The notes beneath the pieces were generated by a model. That model ran no database searches. It was not told where the DNA came from and was given only the letters and a program-made list of their open reading frames with translations. This document shows, piece by piece, positions 44,161-64,000 of a stretch of 64,000 bases of DNA. The position numbers were made by a program, and so were the translations under genes. Each line of letters opens with the position of its first letter. Positions within the stretch are counted from its first letter, which is position 1. The stretch is taken from positions 1 to 64,000 of the forward strand of contig NZ_JADFUA010000006.1 of assembly GCF_015223195.1 (NCBI RefSeq). Direction: 5' to 3'. This DNA is from Chitinilyticum piscinae (lineage in GTDB: Bacteria; Pseudomonadota; Gammaproteobacteria; Burkholderiales; Chitinibacteraceae).

Positions 44161-44236
44161 GCGGGATTAGCTCAGTTGGTAGAGCGATACCTTGCCAAGG
44201 TATAGGTCGAGAGTTCGAGCCTCTTATCCCGCTCCA
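44161..44236 (+). tRNA. tRNA-Gly (GCC), copy 1
   Basis: 76-base cloverleaf with CCA-like TCCA end. Acceptor GCGGGAT/ATCCCGC pair; the anticodon loop is CTTGCCAAG with GCC; the T arm is GAGAG-TTCGAGC-CTCTT. Confidence 0.97.
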
Positions 44237-44258
44237 GAGAAAACGAATTTGCCCAAGC

Positions 44259-44334
44259 GCGGGATTAGCTCAGTTGGTAGAGCGATACCTTGCCAAGGTA
44301 TAGGTCGAGAGTTCGAGCCTCTTATCCCGCTCCA
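44259..44334 (+). tRNA. tRNA-Gly (GCC), copy 2
   Basis: Identical to copy 1 in all 76 bases. The 22-base spacer differs. Confidence 0.97.
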
Positions 44335-44365
44335 CAGCAAATTCGCTTAGTTTTGTGCCCTGCGT

Positions 44366-44441
44366 GCGGGATTAGCTCAGTTGGTAGAGCGATACCTTGC
44401 CAAGGTATAGGTCGAGAGTTCGAGCCTCTTATCCCGCTCCA
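44366..44441 (+). tRNA. tRNA-Gly (GCC), copy 3
   Basis: Identical to copy 1. Separated from copy 2 by 31 bases. Confidence 0.97.
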
Positions 44442-44468
44442 CTTTCGCAGAGTACAGAACACCGATTT

Positions 44469-44544
44469 GCGGGATTAGCTCAGTTGGTAGAGCGATACCT
44501 TGCCAAGGTATAGGTCGAGAGTTCGAGCCTCTTATCCCGCTCCA
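44469..44544 (+). tRNA. tRNA-Gly (GCC), copy 4
   Basis: Identical to copy 1. Separated from copy 3 by 27 bases. Confidence 0.97.
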
Positions 44545-44574
44545 GTTTCCAAAGAAAAGCAGCAGCTTTTCTCT

Positions 44575-44648
44575 GGCGCGATAGCAAAGCGGTTATGCAC
44601 CGGATTGCAAATCCGTGTAGGTCGGTTCGACTCCGGCTCGCGCCTCCA
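44575..44648 (+). tRNA. tRNA-Cys (GCA)
   Basis: 74-base cloverleaf: acceptor GGCGCGA/CTCGCGCC, anticodon stem CGGAT/ATCCG around TGCAA giving GCA, T loop TTCGACT, encoded CCA. It follows the four Gly genes. Confidence 0.95.
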
Positions 44649-44654
44649 GTTTTG

Positions 44655-44682
44655 AAAAAGCCGCTCAAGCAGCGGCTTTTTT
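44655..44682 (+). terminator. terminator after tRNA-Cys
   Basis: AAAAAGCCGCT and AGCGGCTTTTTT pair around a 5-base loop. It separates the Gly-Cys unit from tRNA-Leu. Confidence 0.9.
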
Positions 44683-44720
44683 CGCATCCATCCCCCGGTT
44701 ATGCCGACCGGGTGCCTGAT

Positions 44721-44805
44721 GCCGCCATGGTGAAATTGGTAGACACAAGGGACTTAAAATCCCTCGCCTTTTGGTGTGCCGGTTCGACCCCGGCTGGCGG
44801 CACCA
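44721..44805 (+). tRNA. tRNA-Leu (TAA)
   Basis: 85-base class II tRNA with long variable arm. Acceptor GCCGCCA/TGGCGGC pair, anticodon loop CTTAAAA between GGGA and TCCC gives TAA, CCA is encoded. I see no clear promoter between it and the upstream terminator. Confidence 0.95.
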
Positions 44806-52390: not shown

Positions 52391-52813
52391 CTATTTGAAC
52401 AGCGCCTGCAGCGCATGCAGTGGCAGCAGCAGGGCGGCCAGCCAGCAGGCCAGAGTCAGGGCCGCATAGCGGCGCAGCAGTGCGCGGGTGCCGCCGATTC
52501 GCTCGGCCAGGCTGCGCGGCACGGCAGGGGGCGTACGTCCGAAGACGTGATGCAGGTGCTCATCCAGCCCTGCCAGCGTCACGGCATCCTGCGCAAGCAG
52601 GCGGAAATAGCCGGCATCCAGCCACAGGCGCCAGCCGTGCACCAGCTGCGCCAGGGCAAGCGGCAGCAGCATGAGCCAGCTCCAGCGCGGGGCACCGTCG
52701 GCCAGCAGTCCGGCGCTACACAGCAGCAGCGGGGTAAGCAGCGTGAGCGGGCGAACACTCTCCAGCAGGGCTGCCATCAGCGCGGCGGCTTCGCGCGCAT
52801 TGCGCTCAATCAT
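52391..52813 (-). CDS. small membrane protein behind the YnbD-like gene
   Basis: A 140-residue protein with three or four hydrophobic segments (LTLLTPLLLCSAGLLADG, WSWLMLLPLALAQLVHG, and LTLACWLAALLLPLHALQ at the C terminus). The middle has a soluble helical stretch. I do not recognise it. It overlaps the phosphatase gene by 4 bases (ATGA), so the two products probably work together. It is the last gene of the minus-strand cluster. Confidence 0.7.
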   Translation of the reverse strand: MIERNAREAAALMAALLESVRPLTLLTPLLLCSAGLLADGAPRWSWLMLLPLALAQLVHGWRLWLDAGYFRLLAQDAVTLAGLDEHLHHVFGRTPPAVPRSLAERIGGTRALLRRYAALTLACWLAALLLPLHALQALFK

Positions 52814-54138
52814 GGCTGCTCTCCGCGGGCGGGCAGGGAGGCCAGCTCCTGCAGATGATGCTCGCGCAGCGTGACACGCTGGCGGCGTTCGCGCAGCAGG
52901 GCCAGTGCGGCTGGCGCGTCTTCGACGTGGCGGTAGTGGATCAGCCAGGCGGCAACGATCGCGGCGCTGCGTGACATCCCCAGCGCGCAATGTACCAGCA
53001 GCGGCTGGCCGGGATGGCGCAGGCGCAGCTCTTCCAGCAACTGCGCGCCGTGCAGCAGCTCGGCGGGCGTGGGCGGCAGCAGATCCAGCAGTGGCAGGCT
53101 GCGGTAGTCGGCGGCGGGGTGTGCCAGCGCGTTGTATTCGGCGGTGAGGTCCAGTACGCCGGCAAAACGCACTTCCCGCGCGGCGGTAATCGGCCCGAGC
53201 CAGACGCCGGGAACGACCTCTTCCGCGCCGGGTAGTGCTTGCAGGAAATAGCGTCGCACCAGCTTGGCGCCCCAGCGGTACGGTGCGGTGAGCCAGCTGG
53301 CGGCGATGCGCAGCCGGCCGCCGGTTTTCTGGAACACCGCCGGGCCGGCCACGGCATAACCGAATGCGACAACGGCCAGTGCGGCTGCCGGCCACAGCAA
53401 CAGCCAGCCCCAGCCTTGCCACCATCCTGCCAGCATCGCACAGCTGGCACTGCCCAGCAGGTAGCGCAGTGCCAGACTGCGAGCCCGCGCTGGCGCTGCG
53501 GTATGCCAGCGCTGCCAGCGCACTGGCGCAAGCGGCAGCAGCCAGCACACCAGCACGCCCATGGCGATGCCGGTGGGAATGTCGAGCAGATGGTGCTGCC
53601 AGGTAGTGAGCACGGATAGCCCGATCAGCACGCACCACAGGTGCAGCAGCGGCAGCCAGCGTGCCGGCAGATGCGCTGCAAAGCGCAGCCAGATGATGAA
53701 CAGCAGGCTGATGTGCAGCGACGGCGCCTGGTTGAACGGCTTGTCGAACAATCCCAGTGCCGCAAACATCTGCCCGAACAATCCGCCGACTTCGGGGCGG
53801 TCCCAGCCAAAGCGCAGCGGCCAGAGTACGAAGCACAGCGAGGACAGCGCGGTCGCCAGCAGCAGCCGGCAGGCCTGCGTACGGATCTCGCTGCGGGCGG
53901 TGCAGATCAGGATCGAAATTCCGTACATCAGATCGATCGACCAATAGGGCAGGATGGTCCACGGCCAGAAGGGAATCCATTGCCGCTCCCACGCAAACGC
54001 AATATTGCCGACCGCGCTGGCCGGCAGGGTTGAGGCGTAGTGGTTGGCCTGCCCGTAAAACAGGAAAAAGCCGGGCGCGGCGATCAGCAGCCACAGCAGG
54101 GCGTAGCCCAAGGGATGCGCGTGCGTGCGTGTCTTCAT
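52810..54138 (-). CDS. YnbD-like PAP2 / dual-specificity phosphatase membrane protein
   Basis: A 442-residue fusion. The N-terminal half is polytopic with PAP2-type motifs (NQAPSLHISLLF and TTWQHHLLDIPTGIAMG). The C-terminal part is a dual-specificity phosphatase with the HCxxGxSRS site at about 382-391 (HCALGMSRSAA) and an upstream general-acid region LLDLLPPTP. E. coli YnbD has the same architecture and lies next to YnbC. The family is tied to phospholipid metabolism by its neighbours, but the substrate is unknown. The start at 54138 lies one base past the upstream stop. Here it is separated from the YnbC-like gene by the WG cluster. Confidence 0.87.
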   Translation of the reverse strand: MKTRTHAHPLGYALLWLLIAAPGFFLFYGQANHYASTLPASAVGNIAFAWERQWIPFWPWTILPYWSIDLMYGISILICTARSEIRTQACRLLLATALSSLCFVLWPLRFGWDRPEVGGLFGQMFAALGLFDKPFNQAPSLHISLLFIIWLRFAAHLPARWLPLLHLWCVLIGLSVLTTWQHHLLDIPTGIAMGVLVCWLLPLAPVRWQRWHTAAPARARSLALRYLLGSASCAMLAGWWQGWGWLLLWPAAALAVVAFGYAVAGPAVFQKTGGRLRIAASWLTAPYRWGAKLVRRYFLQALPGAEEVVPGVWLGPITAAREVRFAGVLDLTAEYNALAHPAADYRSLPLLDLLPPTPAELLHGAQLLEELRLRHPGQPLLVHCALGMSRSAAIVAAWLIHYRHVEDAPAALALLRERRQRVTLREHHLQELASLPARGEQP

Positions 54139-54139
54139 G

Positions 54140-55261
54140 TCAGGGCTTGCCAAAGTGGGCGGGCGCATCGGTTCGGCGGAAACGCGCAAGGCTGGCGTAG
54201 GGCAGGGTGATGTCGAGTCCGCAGGCTTGGTCAACGTGCGCATAGTCGAGGCTGATGATTACGCCCTTGCCATCGATGCCGTTCAGCCGCAACCAGGGGT
54301 AATCCGTACCGGCCGGGTCTGCGAGAAAGCCGGCATAGCAGTCGTCGCCGCGTTCTTCCTTGTTCAGCTCCCGTTTGAGCACCGTGGCGACGAACTGGCG
54401 GAACGCCGCCTGCCGTGGCCCGTCAATCTGATACACCTGCGTGCCCAGATCGATCTCCTGGCCGCTCTGGCGATCATAAACGCTGCTGCTGTATCCTGCG
54501 TTCGGATGGGCACCGCCACAGTTGTATTCTGTTTGCGTGCGCACATTCAGGTAACGGGCGCTGGAATGAGTGATCGTGCTTTCCTGCTGGAAGTCCTGAA
54601 AATCCCCCGCCGCGGCCGAACAGTGTTCCGCGTCGACAATATTCCCTTGCAGCCGCAAGCGCAGTGCCGCATTGATCGAGGCATCACCGGACTCCGCTGG
54701 CTCAGCCAGCTGCACGCTGCTGGCTGCCAGTGCTTCGCCGCGTTGCCAGCGCAAGGGGGTGATGCGCAGGCCTGCCTGGCTCTGTGTTTTACCGGTGCGA
54801 ATGGCCAGTGCCGGGCTTTGCGCCAGCAGCAGGTTGAAGGGGTCCGGGCGCAAGCTGGGCTGAATGGTTTGCCCCAGGGCCTGCGTCGTTTCTTCGGGCA
54901 AGACCGCAGGTTCGAGGCGCAGCGGCAGGCCGCTTGCCCCCGGCTGTTTCAGCCACTGTCCCTCCCAGCCCCGGCCGGCGCGCCGCAATGACCAGTAACC
55001 GCTCACCACGTCGTCGCCGGGAGATTTGACACGGTATTCTTCCAGCAGGCCGGCGCGCTCGCTTTTGCGCAGCAGCAGTACCCGCCCTTGCGACAGATAG
55101 CCATACTGCCCGCCATCCAGCTTGCCCTTCTGATCGGTGGTGAGCTCGACCACCACCGGCTTGCCGCCCAGCGTGCCGGTGAAGGTATCAGCCAGCGCGC
55201 CAGCCCCGAGCATGAGCTGCAGGCCGGTCAGGATGGCGATGGGTATGCGTCTACAGCTCAT
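54140..55261 (-). CDS. secreted protein with DUF3298-like region
   Basis: A 373-residue protein with a signal peptide (about 1-24, GALA-DT). The C-terminal half contains YNCGGAHPNAGYSSSVYDRQSGQEIDLG, a pattern I associate with the DUF3298 region of RsiV/PdaC-like proteins, and pairs of Cys. The N-terminal half is beta-rich (FTGTLGGKPVVVELTTDQKGKLDGGQYGY). The start codon and the first nine codons lie inside repeat copy H, and I see no ribosome binding site. It directly precedes the phosphatase gene, so it may act with it at the envelope. Confidence 0.65.
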   Translation of the reverse strand: MSCRRIPIAILTGLQLMLGAGALADTFTGTLGGKPVVVELTTDQKGKLDGGQYGYLSQGRVLLLRKSERAGLLEEYRVKSPGDDVVSGYWSLRRAGRGWEGQWLKQPGASGLPLRLEPAVLPEETTQALGQTIQPSLRPDPFNLLLAQSPALAIRTGKTQSQAGLRITPLRWQRGEALAASSVQLAEPAESGDASINAALRLRLQGNIVDAEHCSAAAGDFQDFQQESTITHSSARYLNVRTQTEYNCGGAHPNAGYSSSVYDRQSGQEIDLGTQVYQIDGPRQAAFRQFVATVLKRELNKEERGDDCYAGFLADPAGTDYPWLRLNGIDGKGVIISLDYAHVDQACGLDITLPYASLARFRRTDAPAHFGKP

Positions 55262-55289
55262 GGTTTTTATTGGTTGTGTCGTTATGGGG
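55241..55289. repeat. 59-bp family repeat, copy H, overlapping a gene start
   Basis: GGGTAT at 55241, ATGGGG at 55284-55289, then ATGTAT at 55294-55299 in the third position. It covers the start codon and signal-peptide codons of the 54140 gene and the spacer before it. Confidence 0.65.
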
Positions 55290-55303
55290 TGGTATGTATT
55301 CGG

Positions 55304-55792
55304 TCAGCGGCCGCACACCTCGGCGCGCAGCTGCAACTCGTTGCACAGCATCAGGTACTGGGTAATTTCGCTGCTGCGCACCAGCACGCATTGCCACGGT
55401 TCTTCGGCGCTCACCGGCTTGCCGAAACTGGCCAGCGCAAATTGAGGGCCGAGATCCTGCTGGATCAGTTTCAGCGCCTTGTCGGTTTTCAGGCCGGAAA
55501 GCTCGTCCGGATCGAGCTCCAGCCCGTCGTCAAAGCTTTCCCAGATCTGCGCATACAGATCGTCGAGCTGCGGTGCACAGAACAGCAGGTCCGGCGGCAG
55601 CAGATGGATCAGCACCCATTGCCACAGCGGCATACCGGATTCCTCCGTGTAGCCGTACACATCGTATTTGGCCTGATAGTCGGCCGGATTCTCGCGCGCG
55701 GCGTCCACGGCGGCGACAATCGGTCGGGCATCGTCGGCGTCCATGAAGCCGCCGGAAATCAGGTTGATCAGTTCGGAAATGCTTGCGCTCAT
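55304..55792 (-). CDS. small acidic protein, WG-cluster small-protein paralogue 2
   Basis: A 162-residue soluble acidic protein. It is homologous to the product of 59766-60266: both share MPLWQWVL, a central D..Y..I...FDDG/GEGELDL helix region, KLxxxxLxPxxxLxxFxxPxxA, and VLVRSSxxxxFLxLCxEL. I do not know its function. It follows the WGR-domain gene, with 36 bases between. Being paired with a WG-repeat gene, as paralogue 1 is, suggests a partner or immunity-like role, which is inference only. Confidence 0.75.
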   Translation of the reverse strand: MSASISELINLISGGFMDADDARPIVAAVDAARENPADYQAKYDVYGYTEESGMPLWQWVLIHLLPPDLLFCAPQLDDLYAQIWESFDDGLELDPDELSGLKTDKALKLIQQDLGPQFALASFGKPVSAEEPWQCVLVRSSEITQYLMLCNELQLRAEVCGR

Positions 55793-55828
55793 GCGGGGGC
55801 CTGTATGGAAAGGGGTGAGGAGGGCATG

Positions 55829-56587
55829 CTAGCCGAGTTTGGCCGGATCGGGGTAGCGGGCGACGAGGCCGAGGCCAAGCGAAAAATTGGCGATGCTGTC
55901 GTAATCGTCGTCATGCCCGATCCAGCCCAGATAGGCGTCGTCACCGGTATCCCAGTGCCACAGCGCATAATCCCGCTGCTGCAGCTGTTCGTGCGCGAGC
56001 AGCATGATCTGGCCGACCTCCAGCTCGTCTTCCGGATTGTCGCAACCCCAGTCGAACTCGATGTCGATGTTCAGATTGCTGCACAGTGTTGCCAGCACGT
56101 CGAGCATCGATTCGCTGTCTTTCCAGTCGACAAAGAACAGCAGCTCCCAGTCGGCGGCCTCTTTGAAGCCGGTGGCGATCAGTTCGTCCTCCTGCTCCTC
56201 GTATTCTTCTTTGTTGTCTGCGTCCTCGATGAAGGCCTTGAATTCGGCGCTGCAGCGTTGCGCGAGCGCCGTATTGCCATTGCTGATCAGCGCGTACAGC
56301 TCGCGCGCGCAGCGCAGGATGCGCTGGTGGCGCGTTTCCTGCGCGGCGGTTTCGCCCGGCGTGGCCGGCTGGTAGCCCTTGTTGAGCTTCTCGGCAGTGG
56401 TCTTGTCGGCGACTTTCAGCATGGCTTCGATGCTGTCGAAGTGCTGTGTCTTGCTCTGGCCATTGGCGCCGATGCGGCCATAGCGGCTGATCAGCGTGCC
56501 ATCGTCGTTGAGCGTCAGCTCGTAAAATTTGTGCTCGCCGGTCTCTGCGCTGGAAAGCTCGAAATAGCGTTTCTGCAGGATGCTCAT
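55829..56587 (-). CDS. WGR-domain protein with DUF6630-like C-terminal domain
   Basis: A 252-residue protein. Residues 1-70 are a WGR domain (KRYFELSS..GEHKFYELTLNDDGTLISRYGRIGANGQS). The rest, with LLFFVDWKD and ALWHWDTGDDAYLGWIGHDDD near the end, resembles DUF6630 as I remember it, without certainty. Two acidic stretches lie between. The start at 56587 is immediately next to the ATACCC end of repeat copy I, and its leader lies in the repeat. WGR domains occur in DNA-repair and regulatory proteins, so a nucleic-acid role is possible. Confidence 0.7.
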   Translation of the reverse strand: MSILQKRYFELSSAETGEHKFYELTLNDDGTLISRYGRIGANGQSKTQHFDSIEAMLKVADKTTAEKLNKGYQPATPGETAAQETRHQRILRCARELYALISNGNTALAQRCSAEFKAFIEDADNKEEYEEQEDELIATGFKEAADWELLFFVDWKDSESMLDVLATLCSNLNIDIEFDWGCDNPEDELEVGQIMLLAHEQLQQRDYALWHWDTGDDAYLGWIGHDDDYDSIANFSLGLGLVARYPDPAKLG

Positions 56588-56646
56588 GGGTATGTCTCTG
56601 TTGCTTTTTATTTGCAATGGTCTTGGTGTTATGGGGTGTTGGGTAT
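56588..56646. repeat. 59-bp repeat, copy I
   Basis: GGGTAT at 56588, ATGGGG at 56631-56636, GGGTAT at 56641-56646. It matches copy K at 36 of 49 positions. It fills the space between the WGR gene start and the large WG/Sel1 gene stop. Confidence 0.85.
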
Positions 56647-56647
56647 G

Positions 56648-59600
56648 TTATTTCCCGCCCAGCCAGCCCTTGATCTTTCTGATGAGGCCGCCTTGCTCTG
56701 GCGGGGGCGGATTCAGCTCGTCCCAGCGCTGGCGCCACGGTGCGCCGGCCGGATCATCCGGCGGGTAAAAGCGCGTGGCGAGTGTGCGGATCGCATCTTC
56801 ATCCTCGGCTTCGGCGGCTTGTGTCAGCCAGCTTTCGATGTCATATCGTGATGCCTCGACGTAACCATCGAGTGCCAGTTGAGCCAGTTCGCCGCCAACC
56901 CATTCCGGCGCGTCGCCCTGCTGCCAGCAGTAGCGCAAATGTGCGGCCGCTTTGCGAAAGAGCGTGCTGTCATTGCTGGCGCGGGCATGCAGCACCTGCG
57001 TGTAGCCAAGCGATGCCTGCGCATTGGGGAAATTTGCGCGCATGGCCTGGTCGAAGTAGCGGATGGCGCGTTCCAGATCGACCTGGCCGGCCGCACCATT
57101 ACGCCAGTTCACACCTGCGTTGTAGCTGGCGCGCGGGTTGCCCAGCGCCGCTGCGCGTTCGTAATACTGCGTGCCCAGTACGGCGTCCGCTTCGATTCCC
57201 ATGCCATGTTCGATCATGTAACCGGCGTTGTTCAGTGCACGGCTTTTGTCATCGGCGTGACGGTCACCGATCAGCTCGCCGGCCTCGCGCAGCAAGGCCA
57301 GCGTGGCGGCCGGATTGCTGCTTTCTTCCAGGCTGTCGATGCCGACCCAGGCTAGACTGTTCAGCGCACGACCGCGCCAGGAATCCGGATCGCTTGCTGG
57401 TGCACGCTCAGAAAGCTCGCGCCACAGTGCGCGGGCGAGGTCCGCATTCTGCGCCACGCCTGCCTTGCCGTATTCCACTGCCTCGGCCAGCTCGAAACCG
57501 GCCGCCCAGTCGCCGGCGGTAAAGCGCTGGCGCAGGTGGTCGGCGTAACTTTGCGTGCTGCCGTCGGCAAACAGGTATTCCACGCGGTTGTGTCGAGCAT
57601 TCCACGCTTGTGCGCCAGCGCCCTTGCGCCACAGCGCCTCGATCTCCTCGGCAATCGTGTCGCCGAGCTCTGCGATGCTATAGGTCTTGCCGATCCAGGC
57701 GTAATCCTCGGCGAACAGCGCGCTGCCGTCAGCACGCAGAATACCCATGCGCTGGTCCTGCCCCTGGCCGGGCTCGTCGGGATGAGCCGGGCGCTCGCAG
57801 ATGAACACTGGCTCGGTGTTCATGCCCGCAGCAAAAATCGGCGCGATGGCGCTGTACTGGCAGGGCAGCAGCTGGCTGGCGCTATCCAGCAGCCAGACGC
57901 CGTAGCGTTCCTCGGCGCGCGCTTTACGCTTTTTCTGTGCGGTTTTTTGACCCACCTGCAGCAGCCCGCGCCAGCGCGGGTGCTGGCGGATGGTTTTGCG
58001 CCAGGGCGACAGCAGTTCGATGCTGGAAAACTCCGCCGGCAATTTTGCCACGCCATCCAGCGTCAGCAGATTGGCGACGCCGTCGCGAGTCACATTGAGC
58101 AGGCGTTCGCCCAGCACATCCGCCTGCAGTGGCGTGATGTCTTCATACTGGCAAGGCAGTAGCGTCTCGCCACGAACATCGCTGACCCCGTAGCCGTGTT
58201 TGCCACGGCGCAGAATCAGCTGGCGTCCACCCGGCAGATGATCAAACAGCGTGCCGTGCACCTCTCCCTCGGAAGGCTGCATGACAATGCAGCCATCGGC
58301 ATGCATCAGGCTGAAGAGTTCAATGCCCTCGGCATCGGTCTGGCTGAGCTGCCACAGCCGACGATCTTCATCCCAGCTGATGCTGTTGTAAACGCAGGGC
58401 AGCAGCTCGCTGCCGTCTGCCGCCAGCAGGCCCCAGCCATTTTCATTCTGTACGCGGCGCTGGTCACGGACCGGTTTTTCGTCTGAGCGCAGCATGTCCA
58501 GATAGCGATGCGGCACGACCAAAGCGCCGTTGTGGTCGATCAGCCCCCAGCGATCATTCTGCAAGGCGCCAATCAGCTTGCCGTCGTAATTGCCCAGTTC
58601 CTGATACTCAAGCGGGACAACGATTTGCCCAAGGCTGTTGATGAGTCCTTCGAGGTCATCGCGGCGCACGGCGGCATGCCCGTTGGCTGCGAAATACCAC
58701 ATCTCGTCGAATGCGGCGGCGGTGAGCCGTTGCGCCGGGGTGCTGCGGCTATCGGCCAGCCCCCACAGGCCGTTTTCCTGGTAGGCAAACAGGTGTTCGA
58801 ATTTGCCACCGGCTTCGTCCAGGCGACCAATGTTCTCGAACTCCGCTGCCATGACGAGGGGCGCATCGGCATCTTGCCCGCGGCGCAGGCCGTAGTGTTC
58901 GCCATCCTGAAAGCGCCAGCAATCGGCTGTGATGTGATCCTCGTCGCTTTCCGCTTCGTCTTCGTCTTCGTTTTCGTCTTCGTTTTCGTCTTCGTCGTAG
59001 TCGCCATCGCCATCTATCAGACCGGTGTATTCAACACCGTCGTCCGGATCGGCAGAGAAGAAGGGATGATCAAGACCGCCCAGGCCGAATACCCACAGCC
59101 AGGATTGCCATTCCAGCCAAGCCGCCGGGGTCATCCAGTCGCCGGTGAGCGCGACGTCAAACCGGGCATGCTGGCCATCGCGTAGCGCTTGCAGTGCCTG
59201 CTGCCAGCTCAGATTGATTTTCTCCATTTCGCTCGCCGCCCAGGCCGGAACGGCGGTCTCGAAATAGCTGTAATCACCCGGCTCGTAGTCGTCCGGGTCG
59301 TAGCCGCTGCTACTTAGGTGAAACAGCTCGTCAATGTCGGCACTCAGCTCGGCCTCGTCGCCATAGCGTTCCTGCAGGTCAGCCAGAAACTGCCGCGCGG
59401 CGTCGAAAAAGCGCGGTAGCTGCGGCAGGCTGGCCACTGCCGGATGCCGCTGCAGAAAATCGAAAACCAGCTCGGCGCGGGTGCGCGCCGCAAGCAGCGG
59501 CACGACCAGATTGTCACTGCCGCAATCAGTGAACACGCGCTGGATGTCGATAGCCGGCCCGGTATAGGCCTCGGCCAGCAGCACTTTCCACAGCGCCGGA

Positions 59601-59674
59601 ATGCCGTTTTTGGCTTCGGCGATCTGTTCCTGTCCATCGTCGTTCTGGATGTAGAGATAAATGCGGTGACCCAT
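56648..59674 (-). CDS. large WG-repeat protein with Sel1/TPR-like C-terminal region (paralogue 2)
   Basis: A 1008-residue protein with no signal peptide. Order: N-terminal domain (about 1-230) shared with the 60329 gene; an acidic low-complexity tract (about 223-250); WG-type repeats (about 255-650, recurring xGxWGLxDxxGxxVxPxxYxxI units, for example ENGLWGLADSRS and NDRWGLIDHNGALVVPHRY); a segment shared with the paralogue (YAWIGK, WNARHNRVEYLFADGS); and Sel1/TPR-like helices (about 735-960, for example GIEADAVLGTQYYERAAALGNPRASYNAG). The start at 59674 has GGAAG upstream. Function is unknown. Confidence 0.8.
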   Translation of the reverse strand: MGHRIYLYIQNDDGQEQIAEAKNGIPALWKVLLAEAYTGPAIDIQRVFTDCGSDNLVVPLLAARTRAELVFDFLQRHPAVASLPQLPRFFDAARQFLADLQERYGDEAELSADIDELFHLSSSGYDPDDYEPGDYSYFETAVPAWAASEMEKINLSWQQALQALRDGQHARFDVALTGDWMTPAAWLEWQSWLWVFGLGGLDHPFFSADPDDGVEYTGLIDGDGDYDEDENEDENEDEDEAESDEDHITADCWRFQDGEHYGLRRGQDADAPLVMAAEFENIGRLDEAGGKFEHLFAYQENGLWGLADSRSTPAQRLTAAAFDEMWYFAANGHAAVRRDDLEGLINSLGQIVVPLEYQELGNYDGKLIGALQNDRWGLIDHNGALVVPHRYLDMLRSDEKPVRDQRRVQNENGWGLLAADGSELLPCVYNSISWDEDRRLWQLSQTDAEGIELFSLMHADGCIVMQPSEGEVHGTLFDHLPGGRQLILRRGKHGYGVSDVRGETLLPCQYEDITPLQADVLGERLLNVTRDGVANLLTLDGVAKLPAEFSSIELLSPWRKTIRQHPRWRGLLQVGQKTAQKKRKARAEERYGVWLLDSASQLLPCQYSAIAPIFAAGMNTEPVFICERPAHPDEPGQGQDQRMGILRADGSALFAEDYAWIGKTYSIAELGDTIAEEIEALWRKGAGAQAWNARHNRVEYLFADGSTQSYADHLRQRFTAGDWAAGFELAEAVEYGKAGVAQNADLARALWRELSERAPASDPDSWRGRALNSLAWVGIDSLEESSNPAATLALLREAGELIGDRHADDKSRALNNAGYMIEHGMGIEADAVLGTQYYERAAALGNPRASYNAGVNWRNGAAGQVDLERAIRYFDQAMRANFPNAQASLGYTQVLHARASNDSTLFRKAAAHLRYCWQQGDAPEWVGGELAQLALDGYVEASRYDIESWLTQAAEAEDEDAIRTLATRFYPPDDPAGAPWRQRWDELNPPPPEQGGLIRKIKGWLGGK
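58954..59003. repeat. tandem repeat encoding the acidic tract of the WG/Sel1 protein
   Basis: Reiterated TCTTCG/TTTTCG units (12-base period) encode an Asp/Glu/Asn run. Unit number could vary. Confidence 0.85.
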
Positions 59675-59695
59675 GCTGGCTTCCGGATTTTGAAT

Positions 59696-59754
59696 GGGTA
59701 TATAAATACAGCCATTGAAAATCAATGGCTGTAATCAGATACATTGACGAGTAT
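59696..59754. repeat. 59-bp repeat, copy J
   Basis: GGGTAT at 59696, ATACAT at 59739-59744, GAGTAT at 59749-59754. It also contains an internal palindrome (CAGCCATTGA/TCAATGGCTG). It lies between the WG/Sel1 gene start and the next stop. Confidence 0.8.
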
Positions 59755-59765
59755 TTTTGGGTGTG

Positions 59766-60266
59766 TCAGAGAGCCGGGCTGATGGGCAGGTTCAGCTCGC
59801 GGCAAACCGCAAGGAAACTTTCCAGCTTGGTGCTGCGCACCAGCACCATCTGACGGCGGGCGTCGATGGGCTGGGCAAAATTGACCAGCGTGTAGGCCGG
59901 GGCCAGCTCCTCCAGCACGAGCTTGAGGGCGGCGTCTTCATTATGGCCAGCCAGTGTCTCAGCTGCGAGATCGAGCTCGCCCTCGCCGAAGGCGTCGAGA
60001 ATGTCATCGTACAGCTCGGCGATGCGGTTGCCCCGGAACACCATGCCGCCTTCCAGCTGTTCCAGCAGCACCCACTGCCACAGCGGCATGGCCGCATCGC
60101 CCTGCTGTGCCTGGAAGGCTGGATAGCCGCTGGCGCTGTCCGCGGCCAGATAGGCGTCGGCATCGGCGGCGGCCTTGCCGACTTCGGCAGTCAGTGCATC
60201 AAGGTCGGCGGCATCCAGCCCGCCATCGGCGAGGATTTCAAAAAGTTCATGGATCTGTTTCTGCAT
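59766..60266 (-). CDS. small acidic protein, WG-cluster small-protein paralogue 1
   Basis: A 166-residue soluble acidic protein homologous to the product of 55304-55792 (shared MPLWQWVLLEQL, DDILDAFGEGELDL, and VLVRSTKLESFLAVCREL). AGGAAA lies eight bases before the start. It follows the WG gene at 60329 by 62 bases. I do not recognise its function. Confidence 0.75.
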   Translation of the reverse strand: MQKQIHELFEILADGGLDAADLDALTAEVGKAAADADAYLAADSASGYPAFQAQQGDAAMPLWQWVLLEQLEGGMVFRGNRIAELYDDILDAFGEGELDLAAETLAGHNEDAALKLVLEELAPAYTLVNFAQPIDARRQMVLVRSTKLESFLAVCRELNLPISPAL

Positions 60267-60328
60267 GGGGTGTGTTTCCTGTTCGTAATCGAGTTCGTAA
60301 TACTGGGGCGTTGGCCAGAGGGCGCAGC

Positions 60329-62263
60329 TTACGCGCTTTCGCGCCGGCCGTCGGCATAGAGACGTTCCCGCTGGCCACTGCCGGCGTTGAGCGCATTGAC
60401 GGCTTCGGCTTTGCCCCAGTATTCCTTGAGTTTCATCACCAGGCGGGCCAGTTCGCGCGCCGTGCCGCTGGCCTCGTTGTCCAGCCAGGCGTAGTCATCG
60501 GGAAACAGCCTGCTGCCATCGGCGTGGTAGAGCGCAAATCGCTGCGGGTGTTGCGTTCCATCTTCGTCGGGCTGGCACGGCCGCACCGAGAGAAAGAACA
60601 GACACGTGGGCTCGTCCAGCAGCACCGGCTGGATGGCGGTATGGTTGCAGGCAATGCGCGGCGCGGGTTCAGCAACATGCCAGATGCCTTCCAGCTTGCC
60701 GCGCAGCCGGTCCTGGCCTTTTTCATTGACGCGCAGCAGGCCACGCCAGTCCGGATGGCTGCGAATGATGTTGTATTCGGTCAGTAGCGAAATCTGGCGG
60801 AAGCGCTCCGGCAGCAAGGGCTGTGCCGCGCTGTCCAGCAGCATCCAGCCGTTCTTGTTTTTGACCAGCAAGGTAGGTTCGCCAGTTGGCGGGAAATCAC
60901 AGCGCTCGATTTGCTCATGGATGCAGGGCACCAGTAGCTGGCCATCCGGCGTCATCAGTCCCACGCGGTTGTCGGCAGTCACGCTGAGCAGCACGTCTTC
61001 AATCAGCCAGTCGCCCGGATCATGGCGGCTCGCGGGCAGCCACGGCGTGCCGTCCGGGCGGTAGAGTGCAAACTGCTCATCCTTGCTGGTTTTCCACGCG
61101 TAGAGGCTGCGGCTCCACTCAATTTCGTCAAATGCGCAGGGCAGGATTTCCCGGCCGCTGGCGTCCAGCAGTCCGAGCCCGGCATCGCTCGTGGCCAGAA
61201 AAAACGGCGGCAGCAGTTGCTCGTTCACCCAGATATGCTGATCGAGCAATTCGAGCGAGGCATAGCGCGGGGCACACAGCTCGCGGCCATCACGATGGCG
61301 CAATCCCCAGCGTTCGTTCAGTTCGACGGGATAGAGGCCATCGCGGCCTTCGCCAATGTAGTCATAGATGGGTGGAATGATCTGCCGGCCCTGCAGATCA
61401 AGCAGGCCTTCTTGCTCGCCGATCCGCATGATGGCCAGTCCATCCTCGTAGGCCCACAGCTCATCGATGCAGGCATCGACCAGGATGCTGGCCGGGGCCT
61501 GGCGGCAATCGGCAATGCCCCAGCGACCATTTTGCCGGAAGGAGACCAGATGCAGCGCTGCATCATCGTCCCGGCCCATGCTGCTGATTTTCTCAAAATG
61601 CGCAGGCAGCAGCGGCACGGTATCCGTACCCGTGCCGCGTTGCACCCCGAAGCCTGCGTCGCTGCGGGTGCGCCACAGGCCACCGCCCAGATGCTGCTCA
61701 TCCGGATGCTGGCTGTGTTCGCGGTGTGCGTGCTTGTAGCTGAGATAATCACCGGCGAAATCCGCATTCGCCGGCCAGAAAAACGGGTGATTGGCGGCCC
61801 GCTGGCCGATTACGTTTTCCCAGAACACCGCTTTTTCCGGATCTACAACCCCTGCCACGTCGCAGAACACCTCGTAGTCACCGCTGGCTATTGCCGCACT
61901 GAGGGCCTGCCAATCGTCCCGCAATTCCTGCGCGGTCAGCTCTGCGTCGTCATCTTCGGCTGCGACGGAAATCCAGCCCTGCTCGCCATGGCGGTTCAGT
62001 ACATCGGCCAGCCATTGCCGCATGCCTAGCGTATAGCGTGTCAGCACCGAATCCCCGGCAACCCTCGGGTGCTGGCTAATGAAGGCGAGCACCAGTTCGG
62101 CACGCCGGCAGGCGGCTGGCAATGACGCGCGCAGCTCGTCCTCTTCTGTTGGTACGGCATCGGCTAGCAGCACGCGGAAGAACGCGGGATAGCGGTGACT
62201 GGCCTCGGCGAGTGCTTCGCCGCCGTTCGGGTTTTCAACACCGAGTTCTAGTAATTCCGGCAT
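60329..62263 (-). CDS. WG-repeat protein (paralogue 1)
   Basis: A 644-residue protein collinear with the first two thirds of the 56648 gene product. It has the same N-terminal domain (FFRVLLADA.., RRAELVLAFISQHPRV, GMRQWLADVLNRHG) and WG-type repeats (about 215-500, for example NGRWGIADCRQ, NERWGLRHRDGRELCAPRYASLE, DAGLGLLDASGREILPCAFDEIEW). A shared distal part has HPDWRGLLRV and YAWLDNEASG, ending soon after RLYADG. It lacks the acidic tract and the Sel1 region. The leader is formed by repeat copy K; only a weak GAGAAAC precedes the start. Confidence 0.8.
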   Translation of the reverse strand: MPELLELGVENPNGGEALAEASHRYPAFFRVLLADAVPTEEDELRASLPAACRRAELVLAFISQHPRVAGDSVLTRYTLGMRQWLADVLNRHGEQGWISVAAEDDDAELTAQELRDDWQALSAAIASGDYEVFCDVAGVVDPEKAVFWENVIGQRAANHPFFWPANADFAGDYLSYKHAHREHSQHPDEQHLGGGLWRTRSDAGFGVQRGTGTDTVPLLPAHFEKISSMGRDDDAALHLVSFRQNGRWGIADCRQAPASILVDACIDELWAYEDGLAIMRIGEQEGLLDLQGRQIIPPIYDYIGEGRDGLYPVELNERWGLRHRDGRELCAPRYASLELLDQHIWVNEQLLPPFFLATSDAGLGLLDASGREILPCAFDEIEWSRSLYAWKTSKDEQFALYRPDGTPWLPASRHDPGDWLIEDVLLSVTADNRVGLMTPDGQLLVPCIHEQIERCDFPPTGEPTLLVKNKNGWMLLDSAAQPLLPERFRQISLLTEYNIIRSHPDWRGLLRVNEKGQDRLRGKLEGIWHVAEPAPRIACNHTAIQPVLLDEPTCLFFLSVRPCQPDEDGTQHPQRFALYHADGSRLFPDDYAWLDNEASGTARELARLVMKLKEYWGKAEAVNALNAGSGQRERLYADGRRESA

Positions 62264-62275
62264 GGGCTGTTTCTC

Positions 62276-62334
62276 GGGTATATCCGTGCGGCCTTTTACT
62301 TGTAATGGTTATGCGCTTATGGGGTTTCGGGTAT
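62276..62334. repeat. 59-bp repeat, copy K, overlapping the 3' end of the YnbC-like gene
   Basis: GGGTAT at 62276, ATGGGG at 62319-62324, GGGTAT at 62329-62334. It supplies the last eight codons and stop of the YnbC-like gene (DTRNPISA) and most of the spacer to the WG gene. Confidence 0.85.
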
Positions 62335-64000
62335 CCGAATCGGCGGCGCTGTCTGTGCTGGCGTTGACCGCAGCAGGGGCGCTAAGGCGGCGGCGTGCCA
62401 GCGACACTGTGAACACACCCCATTCATCAATGCGCTGCTCCAGCTTTTCAAAGCCGGCGGCTTCGACGAGCTGATCCATTTCCTGCTGCGTGCGCCGGCG
62501 CATCACCCAGGCTTTGCCGTCCTTGTGGCTGGTGAGCGTGCGTGCGATGAGTTCGATCTGCGGGTGCCAGGGCTGGTTGGTGTAGACCAGATAGCCGCCT
62601 TCCGGCACTGCATCGGCAAGCCCTGCCAGCGAGTCGCGGATCGGCCCGTTTTCAGGGAATAGTTCGTACAGGCCGGAGACCACCGCCAGCGTGGGTCTGG
62701 GTTCCAGCGTGGCCAGGCTCTCGTGATCGAAGGCGTTGCCCTTGGCGAAGCGGGCGATGTGCTGCATGCCGCGGTCGATGATCATCTGCTGGCCTGCCTG
62801 CACATTGATGTCGCTGTAGTCGCGCAGCAGGATGCTGGTGACGGGCAGGCGGTTTTTGGTGATGGCATCCATGATGTAGCGGCCATGGCCGGCGGCAATG
62901 TCGACGATGCGGATCTCGCGGCCTGCTTCGTCGAGCTTGCGGATGGCCTTCGCGATCAGTTCTTCCAGATTGATTTTGCGCTGGCGGATGCCTTTCCAGC
63001 CGACGCTATCCAGATACGCCCGGTCACCGAGCTTGCCCAAGAGCGTCGTGCCCCGGGCTTCGTTGCGGTACACGTAATCCAGTGTGCTGCCCGAATCGAA
63101 GCCGGTCGTGAGTCCCAGTTTCACGCCTTCGGAGAGCTGGCCGAGGGTGGCGAGGGAGCGGCGGCTGATGCCGAACTGCCAGCGCTTGGGGCTGGTGATG
63201 GGAAGTGGCTGTTGCAGGGCGGCATACTCCGCGTGGGTGTAGCCGCCTTCATCGGCATGCAACAGGTCCGTCTGTGGTACGCCGGCTTCGGCGCGGGCAA
63301 TGAAGTCACGGATGTGCGCGAACGCTTTCTCGCGCTCCAGCTCGCCCAGCGTGTCATGGTAGAAGCCCGGCAGCACGTGCTTTTCCTTTACGCTGCTACC
63401 CAGTCGCTCGAAAAACTGGTGTTGCGGCTCGTGGTGGACGACCCAGTCGTCACCGGAAATCAGTACTTGCGTCGGGACAGTAATCGCGCCGGCATCCGCG
63501 ATGATGCGCTCGGCGGTGTCGTAGAGTGCCAGCAGGATGTTGACCGAAATGGGGCGGGTAATCAGCGGATCGGTGTTGTAGCTGGCGATGCGCTCGGGAT
63601 CGTGGGTGAGGTATTTGGCCTTCACATAGGAATTGACGAAGAAATTGCCACGCAGCTTTTCCAGCAGCTTCAGCCCCGGGCGGGCAGCCGGCACATACAG
63701 CTTGACCTTGAAGGCCGGCGAGGCGAGCACCAGCGCACGGATTTTGGGCGCGTAATCGTGCACCCAGGCGGCGGCCAGCACCGCGCCGACGCTTTGCGCG
63801 ATGACGATGATGTCTTCCGGACGATAGCCGTATTCGAGGCCGATGTGCTGGATGAAGCAATCCAGATCGCGGATGGTCGTGCCCATGCTCGGCGAGAAAC
63901 CACGCGGGCCGTCATTGCGGCCATGGCCGCGGCAATCCCAGGCGAAGCAGGGCGTATCGGCGTAGCCCAGCTCGTCGACAATGTGCTGCAGCCGGCCCGA
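62309..64000 (-). CDS. YnbC-like bifunctional alpha/beta hydrolase / SAM-dependent methyltransferase (5' end outside window)
   Basis: At least 563 residues; the frame is open to the window edge. The N-terminal part is an alpha/beta hydrolase: DCRGHGRNDGPRGFSP, nucleophile Ser in IAQSVGAV, Asp in SGDDWVVHHEPQ, His in GFYHDTLGE. The C-terminal part is a class I methyltransferase with motif I IVDIAAGHGRYIM and SILLRDYSDINVQ. The same fusion is E. coli YnbC, part of ynbABCD with a CDP-alcohol transferase, a CDP-diglyceride synthase-like protein and the phosphatase YnbD. Those partners would lie upstream, outside the window. The C-terminal tail is encoded by repeat copy K. Confidence 0.88.
   Translation of the reverse strand, partial: SGRLQHIVDELGYADTPCFAWDCRGHGRNDGPRGFSPSMGTTIRDLDCFIQHIGLEYGYRPEDIIVIAQSVGAVLAAAWVHDYAPKIRALVLASPAFKVKLYVPAARPGLKLLEKLRGNFFVNSYVKAKYLTHDPERIASYNTDPLITRPISVNILLALYDTAERIIADAGAITVPTQVLISGDDWVVHHEPQHQFFERLGSSVKEKHVLPGFYHDTLGELEREKAFAHIRDFIARAEAGVPQTDLLHADEGGYTHAEYAALQQPLPITSPKRWQFGISRRSLATLGQLSEGVKLGLTTGFDSGSTLDYVYRNEARGTTLLGKLGDRAYLDSVGWKGIRQRKINLEELIAKAIRKLDEAGREIRIVDIAAGHGRYIMDAITKNRLPVTSILLRDYSDINVQAGQQMIIDRGMQHIARFAKGNAFDHESLATLEPRPTLAVVSGLYELFPENGPIRDSLAGLADAVPEGGYLVYTNQPWHPQIELIARTLTSHKDGKAWVMRRRTQQEMDQLVEAAGFEKLEQRIDEWGVFTVSLARRRLSAPAAVNASTDSAADSDTRNPISA

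What the first reader, a model, noticed from the sequence alone, without database searches (positions are those of the whole stretch)
52391..64000. Uncharacterised WG/WGR gene cluster set between YnbC-like and YnbD-like genes
In E. coli ynbC (hydrolase/methyltransferase) and ynbD (PAP2/dual-specificity phosphatase) are adjacent and tied to phospholipid head-group genes ynbA and ynbB. Here the same two fusions lie at 62309-64000 and 52810-54138 on one strand, with six genes between: two WG-repeat proteins, two small acidic paralogues, a WGR protein and a secreted protein, all in the same direction. Either an inserted module uses this operon, or the inserted genes form a larger system with the lipid-modifying enzymes. 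WG, WGR and Sel1 proteins are common in poorly understood accessory loci, so a toxin-immunity, defence or envelope-sensing role is possible but unproven.
Basis: partly seen in the sequence, partly recalled or inferred. Interest (0 to 1): 0.8.

Follow-up and report, generated by a model that had tools for sequence, protein, structure and literature searches.

The report
Enlarged ynb lipid operon in Chitinilyticum
A chitin-degrading bacterium carries a known but poorly understood lipid-making gene set into which extra genes were added step by step between two genes that normally sit side by side, and the enlarged block was later swapped between species.

Summary
On the minus strand of a Chitinilyticum chromosome six genes (WG, small acidic, WG-Sel1-like, WGR-DUF6630, small acidic, secreted) lie between homologues of E. 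coli ynbC and ynbD. Beyond the window the operon adds ynbA- and ynbB-like genes and an acyltransferase. The two ynb genes are neighbours in E. coli K-12, in 9 of 19 family genomes that have both (own genome counted) and in 5 of 5 class genomes outside the family that have both, so the site was once empty. The insert is not one module: relatives carry one small acidic gene there, or two plus the secreted gene; WG and WGR genes are there only in this genus, and relatives of the WG, WGR and acidic genes stand alone elsewhere. Between two Chitinilyticum species, a tract of about 10.6 kb has synonymous divergence of 0.06-0.15 in six genes, against a median of 0.81 for 81 neighbouring ORFs: the block was exchanged. 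The secreted protein's model resembles RsiV/DUF3298 and lysozyme-inhibitor folds. Best guess: accessory envelope functions recruited to a lipid operon. Toxin-immunity or defence found no support. The evolutionary part is firm; the function is inferred.

The parts
62309..64000 (-). YnbC-like alpha/beta hydrolase + Methyltransf_20 fusion (621 aa; continues to contig position 64174, outside the window)
   Evidence: Pfam Methyltransf_20 474 bits, Hydrolase_4 165 bits; 59% to E. coli YnbC; full length on L002
60329..62263 (-). WG-repeat protein 1 (WG1, 644 aa, pI 4.9)
   Evidence: PF14903 47.6 bits; at this junction only in the two genomes of this genus among 43 family genomes
59766..60266 (-). small acidic protein P7 (166 aa, pI 4.1), no Pfam family
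   Evidence: homologues after ynbC in three further genera
56648..59674 (-). WG-repeat + Sel1-like protein 2 (WG2, 1008 aa; ORF opens at 59725)
   Evidence: PF14903 59.7 bits, Sel1 30.5 bits against a cut-off of 30.7; paralogue of WG1 (33%)
55829..56587 (-). WGR + DUF6630 protein (252 aa; ORF opens at 56617)
   Evidence: PF05406 62.2 bits, PF20335 87.3 bits; stand-alone relative at 82% in G007
55304..55792 (-). small acidic protein P4 (162 aa, pI 4.1), paralogue of P7 (35%)
   Evidence: 82% to the copy in G015
54140..55261 (-). secreted protein (373 aa, signal-like N-terminus by reading); in the model an N-terminal barrel like MliC/PliC and a C-terminal DUF3298/RsiV-like fold
   Evidence: found in g1 and g6 only, 4 of 43 family genomes
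52810..54138 (-). YnbD-like PAP2 + dual-specificity phosphatase fusion (442 aa)
   Evidence: PF00782 48.6 bits, PF01569 30.3 bits; 39% to E. coli YnbD
52391..52813 (-). small hydrophobic protein overlapping the end of the ynbD-like gene
   Evidence: a match follows ynbD in 17 of the 19 family genomes with both ynb genes, own genome counted
52401..63000 (.). tract shared with the other Chitinilyticum species: 38 of 53 bins of 200 bases at 93-100% identity, the other 15 at 74-92.5%; outside, 45 of 47 bins at 56-89%

Best explanation
This is a ynbABCD-type lipid operon (CDP-alcohol phosphatidyltransferase, CDP-diacylglycerol synthase, acyltransferase, hydrolase/methyltransferase, PAP2/dual-specificity phosphatase, small membrane protein) enlarged by accretion in the family Chitinibacteraceae. 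SHOWN: the ynbC-ynbD junction is empty in E. coli and in the more distant genomes examined; relatives within the family hold none, one or three extra genes there; the WG1, WG2 and WGR-DUF6630 genes sit there only in Chitinilyticum, at two separate places; a tract of about 10.6 kb covering the inserted genes and ynbD was exchanged between two Chitinilyticum species. INFERRED: the enzymes make and trim an unusual phospho- or glycolipid in the inner membrane; the secreted protein works in the periplasm as a binder or inhibitor of a wall-degrading (lysozyme-like) enzyme, or as a sensor of one; the small acidic proteins and the WG/WGR proteins are cytoplasmic adaptors that adjust the lipid enzymes or couple them to envelope stress. 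One promoter before the ynbA-like gene would serve all.
For: Gene order and domains. E. coli homology and 13-base ynbC-ynbD gap; the ynbC-ynbD stretch is covered to at least 80% in 4550 of 4566 E. coli genomes with a match, of 5426 (pieces up to about 1 kb apart are joined, so a small insert would not show). Junction states in the 19 family genomes with both genes: adjacent 9, non-coding 2, one acidic gene 4, two acidic plus secreted 2, full set 2. Outside the family 5 of 5 genomes with both genes have them adjacent. The full set needs one change on the tree (100/100). dS 0.06-0.15 in six genes against a median of 0.81 (5-95%: 0.36-1.45, minimum 0.25) in 81 neighbouring ORFs, with sharp identity edges. 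Secreted protein: RsiV-lysozyme complex 5jen Z 10.2 over 189 residues, DUF3298 structures Z 10.3-11.3; N-terminal part PhiA Z 9.0, PliC 8.9, MliC-lysozyme 8.6. Tight spacing. YnbB overproduction raises the glycolipid MPIase in E. coli (PMC6362211, passages).
Against: No experiment or transcript was seen, and the promoter scan found no promoter-like site before the ynbA-like gene. The searches found no lipid product for the operon; in E. coli a ynbB deletion grew normally with MPIase not significantly changed (passages). The secreted protein has no Pfam match at E up to 10, its model is mediocre (pLDDT 62, three sequences), and Rv1980c, discussed in the RsiV paper as carrying the same two domains, did not bind lysozyme (PMC5014341, passages). 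The extra genes are missing in g9, g3 and (as genes) g5 while the lipid genes persist, so they are not needed for the core pathway. Relatives of the WG, WGR and acidic genes stand alone elsewhere.
Confidence: 0.45

Rival explanations
1. Passengers: the ynbC-ynbD junction merely tolerates insertions, and the extra genes ride on the operon's promoter with functions unrelated to lipids or the envelope.
For: Relatives of WG2 (G144), WGR-DUF6630 (G007) and the acidic proteins (G019, G023, G244, G302, G589) stand alone in varied neighbourhoods; two g5 genomes hold only repeat-rich non-coding DNA at the junction; the junction content differs between genera.
Against: The same small acidic family sits at this junction in four genera and is under purifying selection; in the family the secreted gene was found only here (4 of 43 genomes; not sought further afield).
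Confidence: 0.35
2. Ancient larger operon with losses: a WG + small acidic pair was duplicated as a block early on (WG1-P7, WG2-P4) and sister genera lost the WG genes.
For: The alternating order WG1-P7-WG2-WGR-P4 and similar divergence within each pair (WG1/WG2 33%, P7/P4 35%).
Against: WG genes at this junction in 2 of 19 genomes only; the stand-alone WG2-like gene of G144 has no small acidic neighbour; five genomes outside the family have an empty junction.
Confidence: 0.12
3. Toxin-immunity or anti-phage defence locus inserted in the operon.
For: Small acidic tandem paralogues and WG/WGR/Sel1 proteins occur in such loci (recalled); recombination between species.
Against: No toxin domain among the Pfam matches over cut-off (PF22785, a polymorphic-toxin phosphatase model, scored 19.5 against 27 on the YnbD-like protein); PADLOC gave one weak WGR-only match, 16.1 bits; no small acidic relative in the plasmid collection or in viral contigs.
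Confidence: 0.06

Closest known systems
E. coli K-12 ynbABCD (b1408-b1411)
   Same: Homologues of all four genes: 45, 51, 59 and 39% identity; order A-B-C-D
   Different: Six genes between C and D, an acyltransferase gene between B and C, a small membrane protein after D
ynb operons of other Chitinibacteraceae (Chitinibacter sp. GC72, Jeongeupia naejangsanensis, Chitinolyticbacter albus)
   Same: Same lipid genes; small acidic gene(s) and, in Chitinolyticbacter, the secreted gene at the same junction
   Different: No WG1, WG2 or WGR-DUF6630 gene there; GC72 (G009) has no ynbD match
RsiV / DUF3298 proteins (5jen, 3s5t, 4e72)
   Same: C-terminal half of the secreted protein's model, Z 10.2-11.3 over 187-193 residues
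   Different: No Pfam match even at E 10; no sigma-factor gene in the operon
MliC/PliC/PhiA periplasmic proteins (3f6z, 4mir, 4mis, 7dsg, 7dpy)
   Same: N-terminal barrel of the model, Z 8.6-9.0, 78-83 residues, rmsd 2.6-3.0
   Different: 5-11% identity; the barrel is a common fold; lysozyme-binding loops not tested
Stand-alone WGR-DUF6630 gene of G007 and WG-Sel1 gene of G144
   Same: 82% and 27% identity; same Pfam domains
   Different: Not in a ynb operon; the G144 protein also has a weak DUF7822 match

Membership tests
ynbABCD-type operon | YnbA-, YnbB-, YnbC- and YnbD-like genes in one direction and order | tested here: met
ynbABCD-type operon | ynbC directly followed by ynbD | tested here: not met
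   8.2 kb with six genes between them; hence a variant, not the standard form
ynbABCD-type operon | lipid product | not testable with these tools
   only YnbB overproduction and MPIase seen in print (passages)
WG-repeat proteins (PF14903) | Pfam score over cut-off (25.6 bits) | tested here: met
   WG1 47.6, WG2 59.7 bits
Sel1-repeat proteins (PF08238) | Pfam score over cut-off (30.7 bits) | tested here: not met
   WG2 30.5 bits, one stretch; Sel1-like only
WGR (PF05406) and DUF6630 (PF20335) | Pfam score over both cut-offs (22 and 27 bits) | tested here: met
   62.2 and 87.3 bits
DUF6630, for the small acidic proteins | profile-profile similarity | tested here: not met
   hhalign probability 0.4%, E 0.14; in 13 members scanned Pfam gave PF12236 in 3 (best E 0.0045) and PF21124 in 1 (E 0.057), not DUF6630
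DUF3298 (PF11738, number recalled), for the secreted protein | Pfam match | tested here: not met
   no match at E up to 10 in any of 3 members
DUF3298/RsiV fold, for the secreted protein | structural match over the C-terminal half | tested here: met
   Z 10.2-12.1, 187-197 residues; Foldseek 4e72 E 5.6e-4; model pLDDT 62
MliC/PliC lysozyme inhibitors | barrel fold plus lysozyme-binding loops | tested here: inconclusive
   fold Z 8.6-9.0; loops not tested
known anti-phage defence systems | PADLOC model match over most of the model | tested here: not met
   one match, WGR_XIII 16.1 bits over 51 of 973 positions, in 9 proteins scanned

The most novel reading that the evidence does not exclude
The accreted genes form a working envelope-guard circuit: the secreted two-domain protein captures lysozyme-like enzymes in the periplasm, and a cytoplasmic WG/WGR/acidic-protein assembly tunes the ynb enzymes so that a special lipid is made under wall attack; the circuit spreads between species as one recombining block. 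The small acidic proteins would be a new protein family, of a fold not matched in the searches made here.
Probability: 0.12. Interest if true: 0.7.

Novelty: new variant of a known kind. Interest (0 to 1): 0.42.

Why it matters
ynbABCD is a little-studied lipid operon of E. coli and other Gram-negative bacteria. A lineage that hangs a periplasmic protein of lysozyme-binding-like fold and possible cytoplasmic adaptors onto the same operon gives a handle on what the operon is for. It also shows an operon growing gene by gene, with intermediate stages still found in sister genera, and an enlarged version then moving between species by recombination.

Tried and rejected
Homology of the small acidic proteins to DUF6630: rejected on sequence. 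Known fold for P7: Foldseek best E 0.44 in PDB, VIA best Z 4.1, BFVD best E 0.12; a missing match does not prove a new fold. Profiles of the secreted and acidic proteins against PDB sequences: best E 0.2 and 0.022, taken as chance. Recent transfer of WGR between G007 and Chitinilyticum: rejected, dS 1.56; the high identity is constraint. Plasmid or phage vehicle: WG1 gives 5 plasmid records, partial matches of 23.0-35.4% identity; P7 none in plasmids, the acidic profile none in viral contigs. Compositional island: GC 0.60-0.65 over the inserted genes, up to 0.70 over ynbD, 0.54-0.64 in the 8 kb before; no clear island. PHROGs gave only weak or domain-level matches. Internal promoters or terminators: 1 and 14 found against 3.5 and 12.2 in shuffles, no excess. 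In print: DUF6630 in 0 papers; for WG repeats the listings gave no function, only a putative WG-repeat lipoprotein gene named in PMC8855297 (passages; listings); ynb searches gave only the YnbB work as relevant (listings).
Full report
WHERE IT IS. The window is part of contig C21 of a 3.65 Mb genome. The other held genome of the genus, G001, has the contig length and gene position of Chitinilyticum aquatile DSM 21506 (NZ_KE387259.1). The window therefore comes from another Chitinilyticum species (family Chitinibacteraceae); C. litopenaei or C. piscinae is my inference (one search lists the species).

THE GENES. Minus strand, in transcription order: outside the window a CDP-alcohol phosphatidyltransferase, a CTP_transf_1 (CdsA-like) protein and an acyltransferase; then the YnbC-like fusion, WG1, P7, WG2, WGR-DUF6630, P4, a secreted protein, the YnbD-like fusion and a small membrane protein. 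The gaps from ynbC onward are 45, 62, 91, 60, 36, 42, 1 and -4 bases. Against E. coli K-12 the four lipid genes are 45, 51, 59 and 39% identical to YnbA, YnbB, YnbC and YnbD, and there ynbC and ynbD are 13 bases apart.

THE EMPTY SITE. I scanned the 43 family genomes that the tool gave (200 asked for). A strong YnbC match was found in 20; five further matches were weak and partial (G002, G039-G042) and are left out. YnbD was found in 19 of these 20 (not in G009). Reading the 19 junctions, own genome counted: adjacent in 9 (7 of genus g9, 2 of g3); repeat-rich non-coding DNA in 2 (g5); one small acidic gene in 4 (three of g4, Chitinibacter; one of g10, Jeongeupia); P7, P4 and the secreted gene in 2 (g6, Chitinolyticbacter); the full set of six in 2 (g1). 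G009 has ynbC and a small acidic gene. Outside the family, 9 of 368 class genomes had a YnbC match at E 1e-60 or better (own genome taken off); in the stretches fetched, 5 of these 9 also had YnbD, in all 5 within about 120 bases of ynbC; 4 had no YnbD match, one of them on a contig with only 1.9 kb after ynbC. In E. coli the joined stretch is covered to at least 80% in 4550 of 4566 genomes with a match, of 5426. So the junction was empty before this family. The acidic gene probably came first; on the tree of YnbC+YnbD+CdsA the empty junction of g9, which groups with g1 and g4 at 100/99 (order among the three unresolved), is better read as a loss. P4 and the secreted gene are in g1 and g6 but not in g4 or g10, which needs losses or transfers. 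The root rests on one long E. coli branch, so this ordering is moderate evidence.

NOT ONE MODULE. WG1-like sequence at the junction occurs in 2 of 43 family genomes. In 300 order genomes the WG profile found 13 genomes; apart from the genus only G144 matched over the full length, with a 997-aa WG-Sel1 gene standing alone. Full WGR-DUF6630 genes are in 3 of 43 family genomes; the one in G007 lies alone beside a ychF-like gene (name recalled) and is 82% identical, with dS 1.56: old and strongly constrained, not a recent transfer. The acidic family was found outside ynb in G019, G023, G244, G302 (8 of 399 order genomes matched in all) and G589 (2 of 369 class genomes, own one included); their neighbourhoods, judged by ORF starts, differ. 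The secreted gene was found only in g1 and g6, always before ynbD (4 of 43); it was not sought outside the family. Thus the cluster was probably assembled from separate genes. A rival, that a WG-plus-acidic pair was duplicated as a block and WG was lost elsewhere, is not excluded.

EXCHANGED BETWEEN SPECIES. Between the two Chitinilyticum genomes dS is 0.06-0.15 for WG1, P7, WG2, WGR, P4 and ynbD, 0.31 for the secreted gene, 0.44 for ynbC, 0.42-0.56 for the acyltransferase and CdsA-like genes, 0.93 for the YnbA-like gene and 0.73 for the gene before the operon (the value for the small membrane protein there came from a wrong frame and is dropped). In 81 neighbouring ORFs (mechanical calls, some perhaps spurious; only those with at least 60% identity over half their length) the median is 0.81, 5-95% 0.36-1.45, minimum 0.25. 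In bins of 200 bases from 63000 (inside ynbC) to 52401, 38 of 53 are at 93-100% identity; the other 15 (74-92.5%) lie at the ynbC-WG1 junction, in WG1, P7 and WG2, above all the Sel1 end, and in the secreted gene. Outside, 45 of 47 bins are at 56-89%; two bins in mltG (name recalled) reach 98 and 94%. This is a mosaic recombination tract. It also means that sharing of the cluster by both species is not evidence of long vertical maintenance.

WHAT THE PARTS MAY DO. P7's model is good (pLDDT 90) but has no convincing match in PDB or BFVD. The secreted protein's model is mediocre (pLDDT 62), yet its C-terminal half matches DUF3298 structures and RsiV (Z 10.2-12.1) and its N-terminal barrel matches PhiA, PliC and MliC (Z 8.6-9.0). 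Some of these bind lysozyme (titles of 5jen and 3f6z), but a shared fold shows no function, and the RsiV paper reports that Rv1980c did not bind lysozyme (PMC5014341, passages). No Pfam family matched, so I call it RsiV/DUF3298-like, not a member. For the core enzymes the one relevant paper found shows that YnbB overproduction raises the glycolipid MPIase while a ynbB deletion alone has little effect (PMC6362211, passages).

VERDICT. The evolutionary reading (empty site, stepwise growth, exchange) is well supported. The functional reading (accessory envelope functions on a lipid operon) is inference; passengers are nearly as likely. Toxin-immunity and defence have no positive evidence beyond resemblance.

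Noticed in passing
L002:5767-6408 (contig C21:65767-66408): The YnbA-like gene is only 53% identical between the two Chitinilyticum species, while the genes on either side are 88-92% identical: another replaced allele in the same operon.
   Followed up: partly
L064:7939-8580 and L063:6759-7275: In two g5 genomes the ynbC-ynbD junction holds non-coding, repeat-rich DNA, perhaps the remains of an earlier insert.
   Followed up: no
window 59707-59733: A 12-pair hairpin followed by a T-rich stretch lies between P7 and the likely start of the WG2 gene; possible attenuator.
   Followed up: no
L084:9168-9698 and L085:9140-9670: In two genomes of another family a distant small acidic relative directly follows a tex-like gene, 2-3 bases apart (name recalled).
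   Followed up: no
L051:7036-9361: Chitinibacter sp. GC72 (G009) keeps ynbC and the acidic gene but has no ynbD match.
   Followed up: partly
window 44161-44805: Cluster of four tRNA-Gly(GCC) genes with tRNA-Cys and tRNA-Leu.
   Followed up: no
L137-L145: All nine held genomes of g9 match the DUF6630 part of the WGR protein in a short ORF, away from the ynb operon.
   Followed up: no
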